Origin: Campylobacterales bacterium
Lineage (GTDB): Bacteria > Campylobacterota > Campylobacteria > Campylobacterales > Sulfurimonadaceae
NCBI GenBank assembly: GCA_026390165.1
Contig: JAPLGM010000018.1
Span: 1 to 64,000 of the forward strand
Reading direction: 5' to 3'
DNA: 64,000 nt
The notes beneath the pieces were generated by a model. The model worked only from the letters and a program-made list of their open reading frames with translations, did no database searches and was not told the DNA's origin. Position numbers and translations under genes: made by a program. How positions within the stretch are numbered: position 1 is the first letter of the stretch; each line of letters starts with the position of its first letter. Below are positions 1,057-14,032 of this stretch, piece by piece.

Positions 1057-1470
1057 TTAAGCCATATAGTTTTGAGTAAATTCTTTTGCGGTCATAACTC
1101 TGATATCTGAATTTTTGAAGTCCGCTGTATTATCCGTAATAATTAACTCTGCACCCGCTCTTTTAGCACAAAAATATTGCACTCCATCCTCAAAATCTTT
1201 GAAATCGCTATTAAGAGCATCTTCAATAATGAACCTGTCAATTGAAACTAGATTTTGTTCTTCTAAAATCGTTTTGAGTATCTTTTTGATTTCATCTTTA
1301 TGGGTTGATTTTCTCGTTAAATAATGGGTGTTAATGATAGTTAAATCATTCAAATACAGCTCCACATCCGTCTTTTTTAAAAACAATAGAACAGATTTTG
1401 AAATTCCATTGTCTCTGTTCTCAATGGAATTCATATAGATATTTGTATCAATAAAAATCTTTATACTCAT
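1057..1470 (-). CDS. PIN-domain protein, probable toxin of a type II TA module
   Basis: N-terminal IFIDTNIYMN, DFKDFEDGVQ and ITDNTADF acidic PIN motifs; 4-bp overlap with upstream small ORF. Confidence 0.8.
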   Translation of the reverse strand: MSIKIFIDTNIYMNSIENRDNGISKSVLLFLKKTDVELYLNDLTIINTHYLTRKSTHKDEIKKILKTILEEQNLVSIDRFIIEDALNSDFKDFEDGVQYFCAKRAGAELIITDNTADFKNSDIRVMTAKEFTQNYMA

Positions 1471-1748
1471 ACAGCATACTTGTTAGTCAAATATTCGTCT
1501 CTTGCTTGCTTATAATCAACAGAGCCTAGTTCTTGAAATTCTTTATTTAAAAAATCAAATGCTTCTTCAAGCTTTTTCCCACCATCAGGATTCACTACTT
1601 TCAATGCCTTTAATCTTAAATCTAAATCATCTACCTGCTTTACTCTGATTCTTGGTTTAAATGTTTTGATGTAATCAATAATCATTTCTTTTCCATATTG
1701 AGTAATAATTGATTCGGCTTCTTTGTCATTAACTAATAATGTAGTCAT
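1467..1748 (-). CDS. Probable cognate antitoxin
   Basis: 93-aa ORF immediately upstream, overlapping the PIN-domain gene by 4 bp. Confidence 0.65.
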   Translation of the reverse strand: MTTLLVNDKEAESIITQYGKEMIIDYIKTFKPRIRVKQVDDLDLRLKALKVVNPDGGKKLEEAFDFLNKEFQELGSVDYKQARDEYLTNKYAV

Positions 1749-5775: not shown

Positions 5776-5815
5776 CTTTCACCTCTATATATTTGATTTA
5801 ATAAATTCAGCGATC

Positions 5816-6295
5816 TCATCGTAATAATTCACACTTGTGGCTCATATCCGCAATAAAAACCAAAAAATCATACGGTGTGACAATATGGGTCGCGATACGT
5901 GGTGCACCATCTTCTTGGATATGTAAATGATAATAGGGATGACACGACTGTTCACCCTCATCTGTCCCCTCAAATCTAAAATAGTGTCGGTCGCTTTTCA
6001 TCACATACTGATATTTGTGCAACTCAAATTCATTGGCATATCCCTCTTTTTGTTTAAAATCAATACCAAATGTTATTTCCCACTCATCAAGTCGTAAAGG
6101 GGTATTCTCTTTGGTCAGAACTTTCAATTCAGTACGATTATCATTAATCGAAAATGCCGAATAATCAAACAACTTGTGGTACATCAATTTAATCTCACCC
6201 ACTAACGAGTTAAAATCTTTTTTGGTCTTGACACTCCGATTTTGGACACTGGCTTTATAGCTTTCGTAGTTAGCTTTTAGAGGAGTACATACCAT
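5816..6295 (-). CDS. Uncharacterised protein; third gene of ATPase cassette
   Basis: ORF track; Tyr/His-rich centre (HYFRFEGTDEGEQSCHPYYHLHI). Confidence 0.75.
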   Translation of the reverse strand: MVCTPLKANYESYKASVQNRSVKTKKDFNSLVGEIKLMYHKLFDYSAFSINDNRTELKVLTKENTPLRLDEWEITFGIDFKQKEGYANEFELHKYQYVMKSDRHYFRFEGTDEGEQSCHPYYHLHIQEDGAPRIATHIVTPYDFLVFIADMSHKCELLR

Positions 6296-6801
6296 CGATT
6301 AAACTCCTCTGTATCGTCTAATTGTCCCGCTTGCCATTGCGCTAAAAAATCATCGCTTGGCATCCCATATTTTTCTTCAAAAGCGTGGATGATTTTGGCG
6401 CGTTCATCCTCTTGGGGGATGAGGGTAAATACTTCTAATCCATACCCTTTAAGTTGATTAAACTCTTCTTCAATCATTTTGTTAATAGCGTGATTTGCCA
6501 ACAAAATCAATCGATGATCATCATCGAGTTTATCGCGTAACTGCACTAAAACATCCAAAAATGATTTGGGTTGTTCGATAGCAGTCAAATCAACTAAAAG
6601 TGACCCATTTCTCTCTCGAAGTAGTGCTTCAAATTTAGCTTTTTCTCCATACTGAACCACTTCATATTGTATTTCTGGATCAAAAAGTTGGATTTGTTCA
6701 ACAATCTCCTCACGATTCGTCTCAGCTAAGACCAAGGACAACGCCCCAGCCATTTGAGTAAGATTAAATGCTAATTCACTGCTGTTAGATATGTTAGTCA
6801 T
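6277..6801 (-). CDS. Uncharacterised 174-aa protein; second gene of ATPase cassette
   Basis: ORF track; predicted alternating alpha/beta pattern, no P-loop. Confidence 0.75.
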   Translation of the reverse strand: MTNISNSSELAFNLTQMAGALSLVLAETNREEIVEQIQLFDPEIQYEVVQYGEKAKFEALLRERNGSLLVDLTAIEQPKSFLDVLVQLRDKLDDDHRLILLANHAINKMIEEEFNQLKGYGLEVFTLIPQEDERAKIIHAFEEKYGMPSDDFLAQWQAGQLDDTEEFNRWYVLL

Positions 6802-6804
6802 GAC

Positions 6805-7926
6805 TTAGCTAATTACGCGAGGTGGCGGTGGAATTAAACATTGTACTAACAAAGGATGCATGCGCCACCACCATTGGGTTCCTGAAGCGTCTAGTGTTAA
6901 TATGACCATAGGTGGGCTACTCAAACATAATGAAAAATCACTCAATGGAGGAGAATTTCTATCCACTTCATCTAATGCTTGTTTCCGCAAACTATTAAAT
7001 TGTAGACTTTGTCCAAATTCTTTAAAAGGTTTTAGAATCTCTAATTCCAATTGAAAAATATAGCTATCATCTACCATAGAAGTGCCATTTCGATACATTA
7101 AATTAAGTAAACGGTGTATATTGATCAACATTGATCGCATCACGCCACCTGATATTCGAAGCAATTGATCTCTTTGCCAAGGAGTTAATCGTAGCTCAGC
7201 AATTTTCGCCCGTTTATCTAAAAAATAATCCCAAAAACTAACATTGTCAGGAGAAGGGGAAGGGAGAAGGATATGCGGTCGAGCAGGTTTAATTGGTAAA
7301 TAAATTTCTTCATATCGATTGAATGCAACTGGATATACAACCCAATGTAATGGGGTTACAAAAATAAGTTTTTGTTCTAACATCTTCCATATAAATGAAT
7401 AATCAAATAAAATTTGATCAATCGTTGAAACACTGCTCAATTCTAATAATCGGTCTAACCCATCAATAATAACTGTTAAATCTTTACTGCATTTATATTC
7501 TCTCAAAAGTGTTTTCATATCTATTTCATTAAAAACAAAATCATATTTTCTTCTAGCACTAGAAATAACTGTATCAATAATTGTTGTATCCACAGCTGAA
7601 TCAGATAAATGAAGAATTTGTTTTAAAATAACTAAACTCACTTCTAACGCATTGGATGGAGCTTCCACTTCAAGCTCTGAAAGATCAAAATAATCTACAG
7701 ATAAATTCTTATCGAGTAGTAAACTTTTTAAAAAGGTTGTTTTCCCACTTCCGATTTGACCTGAAATAAAAAGTGGGGGAGATTTTTGAGGGTTTGCATG
7801 AATAAAAAATTCAATATCACGCTTAATAGTAGGATAAATTTCAATATAACGTGTTTCTAACTCTTCCTCGGATAATGTGTGGGTAGGGTGAATATTCTTC
7901 GCCATCTCCAAAATATTAGCCATCAT
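6805..7926 (-). CDS. P-loop (AAA/STAND-like) ATPase; first gene of cassette
   Basis: Walker A GQIGSGKTTF, Walker B-like LTVIIDGLDRL. Confidence 0.8.
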   Translation of the reverse strand: MMANILEMAKNIHPTHTLSEEELETRYIEIYPTIKRDIEFFIHANPQKSPPLFISGQIGSGKTTFLKSLLLDKNLSVDYFDLSELEVEAPSNALEVSLVILKQILHLSDSAVDTTIIDTVISSARRKYDFVFNEIDMKTLLREYKCSKDLTVIIDGLDRLLELSSVSTIDQILFDYSFIWKMLEQKLIFVTPLHWVVYPVAFNRYEEIYLPIKPARPHILLPSPSPDNVSFWDYFLDKRAKIAELRLTPWQRDQLLRISGGVMRSMLINIHRLLNLMYRNGTSMVDDSYIFQLELEILKPFKEFGQSLQFNSLRKQALDEVDRNSPPLSDFSLCLSSPPMVILTLDASGTQWWWRMHPLLVQCLIPPPPRVIS

Positions 7927-7970
7927 TTTCCTCCAAAATCATCAAAAATAGCACAGTCATTGTACATAAT

Positions 7971-11981: not shown

Positions 11982-13805
11982 TTACTCTACAACCGCAAGT
12001 ACTTGACCCGCTTCGATCTTATCATTCACTTGAACCATTACCGCAGTAAGAGTACCTGAACGGGGTGCCAAAACGTCGATCTCCATTTTCATTGCTTCAA
12101 GAATCATAATTTTATCCCCCTGATTAACATAGGAACCTGCTGAGGCGATAAGCTTGAAAACAGACCCTGGAAGTTCGGAGCGGATAGCATTTTCATTTAC
12201 TACTGGAGCTGCTACTGCTACAGGTGCTGCTACTTGAGCTACGGGTGCTGCTGATACGGATTGAACATTTGCATTTCCGTTTACGATTTGTACATTGTAT
12301 TGTTGTCCGTCTACGATTACGGTGTAAGTTCCATTTGCCATTGTAAAATTCTCCTGTAGTGTTGATTGAATTGATTGAGCTACTTCGTCCGTTTTTGGAC
12401 TGTTTTTTCGAACGTTTACGGTTGCTTCCCCTTTGAGGAAAGTAATTCCTTTGATATCACATGAGGCAGCAATAAAAATATTTTCATCGCTGGTTTCAAG
12501 CCCCTCTTTTTCCAAAATCTCTGACCAATAGGCAATCGATTTTTTCTCATCTCGATCGGCAATGTCGATCGCATTATCGGTTGTAGGGTCAAGTTTCAGT
12601 TGCTCGGAAGCGATACGAACAATATCCGCATCAGGAGCCGTTGGGGTTTTACCAAAATAGCCTAATACCATCTTGCCGTATCCTGGAGCAATTTTCTTCC
12701 ATGGTCCCATAAGAGCATTGTTGAGTGCTTGTTGGAAGTAAAATTGTGAAACAGGGGTAACAGAGGTACCGTATCCCCCTTTTTCGACCACTTCACGCAT
12801 TGCACGAATAACTTCAGGATAACGATCCAACATATTGTTATCACGCATCATCTGAGTATTTGCCGTCAATGCCCCACCCGGCATCGGGGAAAATGGAATC
12901 AAAGGTGAAACTTGTGTTGCTTCAGGCGGGATGAAATAATCTTTCAAACAATCGCCCAATACATCTTCATATTGAAGAATTTTTTCAAGTTCTAGCCCAC
13001 CAAGATCAAAGTTTTTACCCTTAACCGCATGTAACATGGTCAAAATATCAGGCTGTGATGTACCGCCACTCACAGGAGAGGCTGCCATATCAATACCATC
13101 TATCCCTGCATCAAGCGCCGCAAGATAACACGCTACACTCACCCCTGCTGTCTCATGGGTATGAAGACGTAAATGGGTCCCCTCAGGAACAAGGCGACGC
13201 GCCATTTGAATTGTCTCATACACTTTTTGAGGGCTTGAGGTTCCACTTGCGTCTTTGAAACAGATTGAACTGTAGGGAATACCTGAATCTAAAATTTCAC
13301 GCAATGTTTTTTCATAGAAATAGACATCATGCGCCCCTACACACCCTGGAGGTAAATCCATCATTGTAACAACGACTTCATGATTGAGTCCATGATACGC
13401 AATTCGTTCACCCGAATATTTTAAGTTTTCAACATCATTGAGTGCATCGAAATTTCGGATGGTCGTAGTGCCGTGCTTTTTAAACATTTTGGCATGCAAA
13501 TCGACCATCTCACGACTACCTGTATCCAACATAACCGTGTTAACACCACGAGAAAGCGTTTGGAGATTGGCATACGGTCCTACGATAGAACGAAATTTAT
13601 CCATCATATCAAACGCATTTTCATTAAGATAGAAAAAAAGACTTTGAAAGCGTGCTCCCCCTCCAAATTCAAAGTGGGTAATTCCCGCATGCGCTGCTGC
13701 TTCAACTGCTGGGAAAAAATCATTCATCAACACGCGTCCACCAAAAACGGACTGAAATCCGTCACGGAACGTCGTGTCCATTATGTCGATGTATTTTTTT
13801 GCCAT
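11982..13805 (-). CDS. Pyruvate/oxaloacetate carboxylase, subunit B (biotinylated)
   Basis: MDTTFRDGFQS, ICFKDASGTSSP, LHTHETAGV; C-terminal biotinyl site EAMKMEI. Confidence 0.92.
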   Translation of the reverse strand: MAKKYIDIMDTTFRDGFQSVFGGRVLMNDFFPAVEAAAHAGITHFEFGGGARFQSLFFYLNENAFDMMDKFRSIVGPYANLQTLSRGVNTVMLDTGSREMVDLHAKMFKKHGTTTIRNFDALNDVENLKYSGERIAYHGLNHEVVVTMMDLPPGCVGAHDVYFYEKTLREILDSGIPYSSICFKDASGTSSPQKVYETIQMARRLVPEGTHLRLHTHETAGVSVACYLAALDAGIDGIDMAASPVSGGTSQPDILTMLHAVKGKNFDLGGLELEKILQYEDVLGDCLKDYFIPPEATQVSPLIPFSPMPGGALTANTQMMRDNNMLDRYPEVIRAMREVVEKGGYGTSVTPVSQFYFQQALNNALMGPWKKIAPGYGKMVLGYFGKTPTAPDADIVRIASEQLKLDPTTDNAIDIADRDEKKSIAYWSEILEKEGLETSDENIFIAASCDIKGITFLKGEATVNVRKNSPKTDEVAQSIQSTLQENFTMANGTYTVIVDGQQYNVQIVNGNANVQSVSAAPVAQVAAPVAVAAPVVNENAIRSELPGSVFKLIASAGSYVNQGDKIMILEAMKMEIDVLAPRSGTLTAVMVQVNDKIEAGQVLAVVE

Positions 13806-13816
13806 AAACCTAATCC

Positions 13817-14032
13817 CTATTTTTTTCTATTATGGTGATGGATCGCTGCCACAAGTGAAGCGAGTCCAGCTAAACCATTGTTTTGTACTGAATTTTCTAA
13901 TTCATGATGGTGAAGAGCAACAGCGATGGCCGCTACTCTAGCTCGTACATCATCAGACTCCAAAGAGTGATGATGAAGTGCCGCCGCAATTGCCGCTACT
14001 TTTGCGCCATCAGGTTTATTCAGTAATTCCAC
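13817..14032 (-). CDS. Small Ala/His repeat protein adjacent to pycB (possible OadG-tail relative)
   Basis: Three VAAI(A)xALHHH-type repeats; GTG start with AGAGG upstream; 11-bp gap to pycB. Confidence 0.65.
   Translation of the reverse strand: MELLNKPDGAKVAAIAAALHHHSLESDDVRARVAAIAVALHHHELENSVQNNGLAGLASLVAAIHHHNRKK

What the first reader, a model, noticed from the sequence alone, without database searches (positions are those of the whole stretch)
5816..7926. Uncharacterised three-gene ATPase cassette inserted between housekeeping genes: candidate new defence/toxin-like system
Seen: three minus-strand, 3-bp-spaced or overlapping ORFs (373-aa P-loop ATPase with GQIGSGKTTF and IIDGLDRL; 174-aa protein lacking a P-loop; 159-aa protein) between midA/argD and thiS/gltA. 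The ATPase gene looks more AT-rich than its neighbours. Inference: the 159-aa C-terminal partner has a Tyr-rich strand followed by a His cluster (YQYVMKSDRHYFRF...HPYYHLHI), loosely reminiscent of small TumE/DUF6516-type toxin folds; the 174-aa protein may be a degenerate regulatory NTPase-like fold. ATPase plus small effectors in an operon is a common layout of defence systems, but nothing here proves that role.
Basis: partly seen in the sequence, partly recalled or inferred. Interest (0 to 1): 0.66.

Follow-up and report, generated by a model that had tools for sequence, protein, structure and literature searches.

The report
ATPase-controlled TumE-like toxin-antitoxin cassette
A rare, mobile three-gene cassette in a Sulfuricurvum-like bacterium appears to join a known translation-blocking toxin-antitoxin pair (TumE-TumA-like) to a switch-type ATPase, so the toxin is probably held or released by an ATP-driven sensor, most likely as a phage-defence or self-killing device; nobody has tested it.

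Summary
In detail: three tightly packed minus-strand genes (ATPase 373 aa, 174 aa, 159 aa) lie between midA and thiS. They are an insertion: relatives have midA and thiS about 25 bp apart, only 3 of 41 genus genomes carry the trio, and the third copy sits at another locus. The trio always travels together.

The 174-aa protein ends in a TumA-like toxin-binding tail (NCBIfam TumA 2.5e-5; PADLOC PDC-M44A 3.8e-6). That tail alone, searched in plasmids, finds small genes whose next gene is TumE (2 of the 4 neighbourhoods examined). The 159-aa protein resembles TumE (YxY and HxH columns; G025 copy 13 bits, 1 of 10,000 shuffles) but misses Pfam's TumE model.

The ATPase belongs to a STAND/AAA+-like family (hhalign 2.8e-14) found in other Campylobacterota and, by HMM, in cyanobacteria. 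There it pairs with a downstream P-loop-free domain fused to TPR or WD40 repeats, and sometimes carries Fic or TIR effectors. The 174-aa N-terminus is probably that docking domain (moderate support).

Best reading: a toxin-antitoxin pair whose antitoxin is docked to an ATPase switch; defence by toxin release is inferred. New variant of a known kind.

The parts
6805..7926 (-). Gene 1: STAND/AAA+-like switch ATPase (373 aa), Walker A GQIGSGKTT (res 56-64), IIDGLDRL (res 153-160), SGG..R sensor-2-like motif (res 259-264), C-terminal 'HPL' region
6277..6801 (-). Gene 2: 174-aa antitoxin-adaptor; residues 1-~130 P-loop-free alpha/beta domain (probable ATPase-docking domain), residues ~133-174 TumA-like toxin-binding tail
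6277..6405 (-). TumA-like tail of gene 2 (res 133-174), conserved in all three copies; AF2 predicts three helices, pLDDT about 70-87
5816..6295 (-). Gene 3: 159-aa TumE-like toxin; conserved YxY (res 95-97) and HPYYHLHI (res 119-126); start overlaps gene 2 by 19 nt
5776..7970 (.). Inserted segment between midA and thiS; the site is empty (about 25 bp between the two genes) in three relatives

Best explanation
The cassette is a TumE-TumA-like toxin-antitoxin pair placed under the control of a switch ATPase. Gene 3 is the toxin (TumE-like, predicted to stop translation, perhaps as an RNase). Gene 2 is an antitoxin that has two jobs: its C-terminal TumA-like tail wraps and silences the toxin, and its N-terminal P-loop-free domain docks on the ATPase, in the same way as the P-loop-free N-terminal domains of the TPR/WD40 partners are thought here to dock on the sibling ATPases of this family. 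Gene 1, the ATPase, is the sensor/switch: a trigger (probably a phage product or other infection cue) changes its nucleotide state or assembly, which is passed to gene 2 and frees or exposes the toxin, so the infected cell stops growing. Shown by sequence: trio integrity, mobility, TumA-like tail, ATPase family and its pairing with a downstream partner. Inferred: docking, toxin release, trigger, phage defence.
For: Tail = TumA: NCBIfam NF045776 E 2.5e-5 and PADLOC PDC-M44A 3.8e-6, in all three copies. Unbiased test: tblastn of the 42-aa tail against 72,556 plasmids gives 6 records; of the best four, two are followed directly by TumE (Pfam PF20126 4.6e-20 and 1.7e-23), two by an unknown 177/188-aa ORF overlapping by 14 nt. 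Toxin: shares YxY and HxH columns with those TumEs; the TumE HMM gives the G025 toxin 13.0 bits (1 of 10,000 own shuffles) and the G003 toxin 6.0 (62 of 10,000), ranks 1 and 3 of the non-TumE ORFs. ATPase: profile-profile E 2.8e-14 to six Campylobacterota ATPases; family HMM finds window ATPase 8.8e-11 and Nostoc 7.7e-33. The relatives examined are followed by a partner with a P-loop-free N-terminal domain plus TPR or WD40. Family members carry effectors: Fic fusion (3.2e-18) and TIR fusion (1.5e-33). Calothrix has two ATPases and a partner with two docking domains. Mobility: 3 of 41 genus genomes, two loci, empty sites. Between copies the toxin/antitoxin stay at 73-83% while ATPase segments outside residues 1-72 fall to 15-56%, as expected for a diversifying sensor.
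Against: The window's own toxin scores only 2.7 bits against the TumE HMM (597 of 10,000 shuffles reach it) and has no Pfam TumE hit; hhalign toxin vs TumE-MarR class is not significant; its AF2 model is poor (pLDDT 46). Docking-domain homology is moderate: one partner 11.9 bits (0 of 2400 shuffles) but others weak, hhalign not significant. Tail matches lie below the curated TumA cut-off. Only three copies exist in the data. No known defence system was recognised in the trio and no experiment exists.
Confidence: 0.6

Rival explanations
1. An ordinary TumE-TumA-like addiction module with an extra ATPase that acts as a helper (for example antitoxin folding/turnover or repression), stabilising the mobile segment and having no defence role.
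For: Small mobile cassette at two loci, toxin after antitoxin with overlapping genes, TumA-like tail. TA pairs next to housekeeping genes are common.
Against: The ATPase family elsewhere occurs without any TA pair, together with TPR/WD40 sensor-like partners and with Fic or TIR effectors, which points to a signalling switch rather than a TA helper.
Confidence: 0.22
2. A STAND-like two-component conflict system (active ATPase + inactive partner, as in iSTAND/nSTAND2 systems) whose third gene is a different effector, not TumE; the tail similarity is only to a general antitoxin-type helix.
For: Architecture close to the two-gene nSTAND2 systems with one eroded NTPase fused to variable effectors (PMC8195603); two of four tail hits are followed by proteins without a Pfam TumE match; window toxin misses Pfam TumE.
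Against: The tail is rare in the phylum outside the trio, so it is not a general motif there; where annotated, its neighbour is TumE; two of three toxin copies rank at the top of non-TumE ORFs for the TumE profile.
Confidence: 0.13
3. A metabolic or housekeeping ATPase operon unrelated to conflict (for example linked to thiS or midA).
For: Sits between housekeeping genes on the same strand.
Against: Absent from 38 of 41 genus genomes, most of which keep midA where searched, present at an unrelated locus in a third genome, empty site seen.
Confidence: 0.03

Closest known systems
TumE-TumA toxin-antitoxin superfamily (DUF6516; Durairaj et al. 2023, PMC10584680); PADLOC candidate PDC-M44
   Same: TumA-type tail in gene 2, toxin downstream and overlapping, YxY...HxH pattern in the toxin
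   Different: Antitoxin is fused to an extra ~130-aa P-loop-free domain and follows an ATPase gene; toxin is longer (159 aa) and below the Pfam TumE cut-off; the passages of the paper read here describe two-gene (or fused) modules with diverse antitoxins, no ATPase
Two-gene nSTAND2 and iSTAND/iSTAND2 conflict systems (Kaur et al. 2021, PMC8195603)
   Same: An active switch NTPase beside a P-loop-free partner that carries variable modules; mobile operon
   Different: Effectors there are GT4, HEPN and others fused to the inactive partner; here the partner carries an antitoxin tail and the toxin is a separate gene. Membership in nSTAND2 could not be tested (no model on hand)
Unnamed ATPase + docking-domain-TPR/WD40 modules of Campylobacterota and cyanobacteria (this work: L065, L066, L108-L111, L150-L153, L156, L157)
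   Same: Homologous ATPase over its full length; partner gene directly downstream
   Different: No toxin-antitoxin part; TPR or WD40 repeats in its place; some carry Fic or TIR effectors
PARIS and other ATPase-effector defence systems (from general knowledge, not tested)
   Same: ATPase that holds or activates a toxic effector
   Different: Different effectors; no sequence relation tested

Membership tests
TumE-TumA | Toxin recognised by the TumE model (PF20126) above cut-off | tested here: not met
   No hit for any of three copies even at E 10; only weak similarity in a home-made TumE HMM: 13.0, 6.0 and 2.7 bits
TumE-TumA | Antitoxin with TumA toxin-binding segment | tested here: inconclusive
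   Significant partial match (2.5e-5; 3.8e-6) in all three copies but under the curated 100-bit cut-off; tail finds genes preceding TumE in plasmids
TumE-TumA | Bicistronic antitoxin-toxin arrangement | tested here: met
   Gene 3 overlaps gene 2 by 19 nt, same in all copies
TumE-TumA | Alpha+beta fold, two helices on a seven-stranded antiparallel sheet | tested here: inconclusive
   AF2 model pLDDT 46; element order helix-helix-strands-helix is compatible but the model is poor, Foldseek found nothing
TumE-TumA | Toxin inhibits translation, neutralised by cognate antitoxin | not testable with these tools
   Needs expression experiment
ATPase + docking-domain partner family (STAND/AAA+-like) | ATPase homologous over full length with intact Walker A | tested here: met
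   hhalign E 2.8e-14 over 341 columns; HMM 8.8e-11; GxxGSGKT intact
ATPase + docking-domain partner family (STAND/AAA+-like) | Directly downstream partner with the P-loop-free N-terminal domain | tested here: inconclusive
   Gene position matches; p174 HMM scores L111 partner 11.9 bits (0 of 2400 shuffles) but other partners 0.3-5.5; hhalign P 0.31
nSTAND2 two-gene system | Both genes carry nSTAND2 modules, one eroded, with arginine finger | not tested
   No nSTAND2 profile on hand; Pfam hits of the ATPase are weak and mixed
Anti-phage defence system | Reduces phage infection | not testable with these tools
   Needs phage challenge; no PADLOC system besides the PDC-M44A-like tail was convincingly matched in the trio

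The most novel reading that the evidence does not exclude
A toxin-antitoxin pair in which the antitoxin has been turned into the effector arm of a STAND-like ATPase switch: the ATPase controls antitoxin-toxin binding directly, so that an NLR-like sensor triggers a TumE toxin by pulling its antitoxin away. This would show how TA pairs are captured as plug-in effectors by ATPase sensors (TPR/WD40, TIR, Fic and TumE variants of one platform).
Probability: 0.42. Interest if true: 0.76.

Novelty: new variant of a known kind. Interest (0 to 1): 0.62.

Why it matters
TumE-TumA was described in 2023 as a simple translation-blocking toxin-antitoxin pair; its trigger is not known to me. If an ATPase switch from a modular sensor family is wired to the antitoxin, the trigger question becomes testable in a three-gene cassette, and it gives a worked example of a TA pair captured as the effector of an NLR-like ATPase. 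It also points to an apparently undescribed ATPase/docking-domain platform with interchangeable TPR, WD40, TIR, Fic and TumE-like parts in Campylobacterota and cyanobacteria.

Tried and rejected
Pfam, NCBIfam, PHROGs and PADLOC scans of the 159-aa protein: nothing. PDB sequence searches with all three proteins: nothing significant; the broader ATPase profile touches TnsC over ~48 columns. AF2 models of the 159-aa (pLDDT 46) and 174-aa (58.7) proteins with only three sequences each; Foldseek gave no E below 0.001 for either. tblastn of the full 174- and 159-aa proteins in plasmids: no match; viral contigs: no relatives of any of the three. Phylum-wide profile match L008 for the 159-aa protein is a chance hit in a frame with a stop next to cytochrome genes. 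Housekeeping reading rejected by distribution and empty sites. TumE-MarR class (L013, L045-L055) has a different antitoxin and opposite gene order, so it was used only as a fold profile.

Full report
OBSERVATION. Flanks are midA (Pfam Methyltransf_28) and argD upstream, thiS and gltA downstream. The ATPase gene is AT-rich (33.4% GC; 28% in residues 73-200) against 39-43% in the flanking genes.

IT IS A MOBILE UNIT. Among 41 genomes of the genus (Sulfuricurvum by the titles of the matching contigs) only three hold the trio. Two have it between midA and thiS (window; G003/L011, there followed by a 180-aa ankyrin-repeat ORF before thiS). The third (G025/L012) has the intact trio between a YgiQ-like radical-SAM gene and an S4-domain gene (both named by eye). 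Three relatives have midA and thiS about 25 bp apart, i.e. an empty site; others have roughly 0.5 kb there that was not examined. No further trio genes turned up in the 397-genome phylum samples, in plasmids or in viral contigs, apart from one chance hit.

GENE 2 IS AN ANTITOXIN-LIKE ADAPTOR. Residues 135-170 match TumA, the antitoxin of the TumE-TumA family (NCBIfam NF045776, 2.5e-5; PADLOC PDC-M44A, 3.8e-6), in all three copies. The score is far below the curated whole-protein cut-off, as expected for a tail on another body. As an unbiased check the 42-aa tail alone was searched against 72,556 plasmids. Six records matched; the best four were opened. In two cyanobacterial records the next gene is TumE (annotated tumE or DUF6516; Pfam PF20126 4.6e-20 and 1.7e-23); in Salinibacter and Dermacoccus it is an unknown 177- or 188-aa ORF overlapping by 14 nt. 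The tail hits themselves are weak (E 0.03 to 8), so the neighbour identity is what carries the argument. Within this phylum the tail is confined to the trio, so it is not a generic motif there. AF2 (three sequences) gives the tail as three helices with pLDDT about 70-87; the N-terminal part is an alpha/beta arrangement of low confidence.

GENE 3 IS PROBABLY A TumE-LIKE TOXIN. No library recognises it. Aligned with the TumEs found through the tail it keeps YxY and HxH columns. A TumE HMM built here from 16 TumEs scores the three copies 13.0 (G025), 6.0 (G003) and 2.7 bits (window); 1, 62 and 597 of 10,000 shuffles of each reach that. The two better ones rank first and third among the ORFs that are not TumE, of 1,934 background ORFs. 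An HMM from only two class-1 TumEs did not separate the toxins from shuffles, and hhalign with the TumE-MarR class was not significant. The AF2 model is poor (pLDDT 46) although its order of elements is compatible with the published description of TumE (PMC10584680). By the membership rule it is not filed as a TumE member; it probably works like one. Published TumE blocks translation (PMC10584680).

GENE 1 IS A SWITCH ATPase OF A WIDER, APPARENTLY UNNAMED FAMILY. An order-wide profile search found six strong relatives in five genomes, with profile-profile E 2.8e-14 over the whole ATPase. Every one is directly followed by a protein with a ~165-aa P-loop-free N-terminal domain and TPR repeats; one ATPase is fused to a Fic domain with the full HPFxDGNGRxxR motif. 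The family HMM also finds Nostoc, Calothrix and Acaryochloris plasmid ATPases (7.7e-33 to 1e-21; window ATPase 8.8e-11); their downstream partners have an N-terminal domain that looks like the same kind, ahead of TPR, nSTAND1 or WD40 parts. Calothrix has two ATPases, one fused to TIR, and a WD40 partner with two copies of the N-terminal domain, which suggests one docking domain per ATPase (inference).

IS THE GENE 2 N-DOMAIN THAT DOCKING DOMAIN? Gene position is the same. The gene-2 HMM (residues 1-137) finds the L111 partner at 11.9 bits with 0 of 2400 shuffles reaching it, L108 at 5.5, others lower; the reverse test with Campylobacterota plus Nostoc partners gives the G025 copy 6.6 bits (22 of 4500 shuffles) and the other two no signal; hhalign is not significant. 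I call this moderately supported.

DIVERGENCE PATTERN. Between window and G025 the ATPase is 79% identical over residues 1-72 but 27, 56, 38 and 15% in the following segments, while gene 2 is 83% and gene 3 73% identical. The effector and adaptor are held constant while the ATPase body and C-terminus change, by replacement or fast evolution, which fits a sensor under pressure (inference).

MECHANISM. Most likely: gene 2's tail silences the gene 3 toxin; gene 2's N-domain sits on the ATPase; a cue sensed by the ATPase changes that contact and frees the toxin, which stops translation in the infected cell. Steps shown by sequence are the cassette, its mobility, the tail, the ATPase family and partner layout. 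Docking, release, trigger and defence are inferred.

PLACE AMONG KNOWN SYSTEMS. The nearest concepts are TumE-TumA (PMC10584680) and the STAND-type conflict systems with an active and an inactive NTPase, such as iSTAND and nSTAND2 (PMC8195603). The literature searches made with TumE, TumA or DUF6516 as terms returned no paper on an ATPase-linked TumE in the open-access library held here; subscription papers and preprints could not be searched. I rate it a new variant of a known kind.

Noticed in passing
L065:764-3037 (-): Relative of the window ATPase fused behind an apparently intact Fic domain (HPFDDGNGRVVR), followed by a docking-domain-TPR protein cut by the contig end.
   Followed up: partly
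L156:7001-14508: Calothrix plasmid: ATPase, ATPase-TIR fusion, then a WD40 protein with two copies of the docking domain; suggests one docking domain per ATPase.
   Followed up: partly
L066, L108, L109, L110, L111: Two-gene modules, ATPase (~430-450 aa) plus docking-domain-TPR protein, inserted singly between housekeeping genes in several Campylobacterota; apparently unnamed.
   Followed up: partly
L176:1087-1876 and L179:1183-1900: Salinibacter and Dermacoccus plasmids: small ORF with a TumA-like tail overlapping a 177- or 188-aa ORF without any Pfam match; candidate new toxin partners of TumA-type antitoxins.
   Followed up: partly
window 1057-1748 (-): Overlapping pair that looks like a PIN-domain VapC toxin with its antitoxin (by eye, not scanned), about 4 kb from the trio.
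   Followed up: no
window 13817-14032 (-): 71-aa ORF with three repeats of a V-A-A-I-x-x-A-L-H-H-H type motif just upstream of a carboxylase-like gene (11982-13805); not identified.
   Followed up: no
L113-L147: TumE genes occur in at least 35 IMG/VR viral contigs; the two opened (L146, L147) have a small HTH-like ORF directly downstream.
   Followed up: no
L011:6462-7004: Ankyrin-repeat ORF between the trio and thiS in G003; several other relatives have about 0.5 kb at this site, so midA|thiS may be a recurrent insertion site.
   Followed up: no
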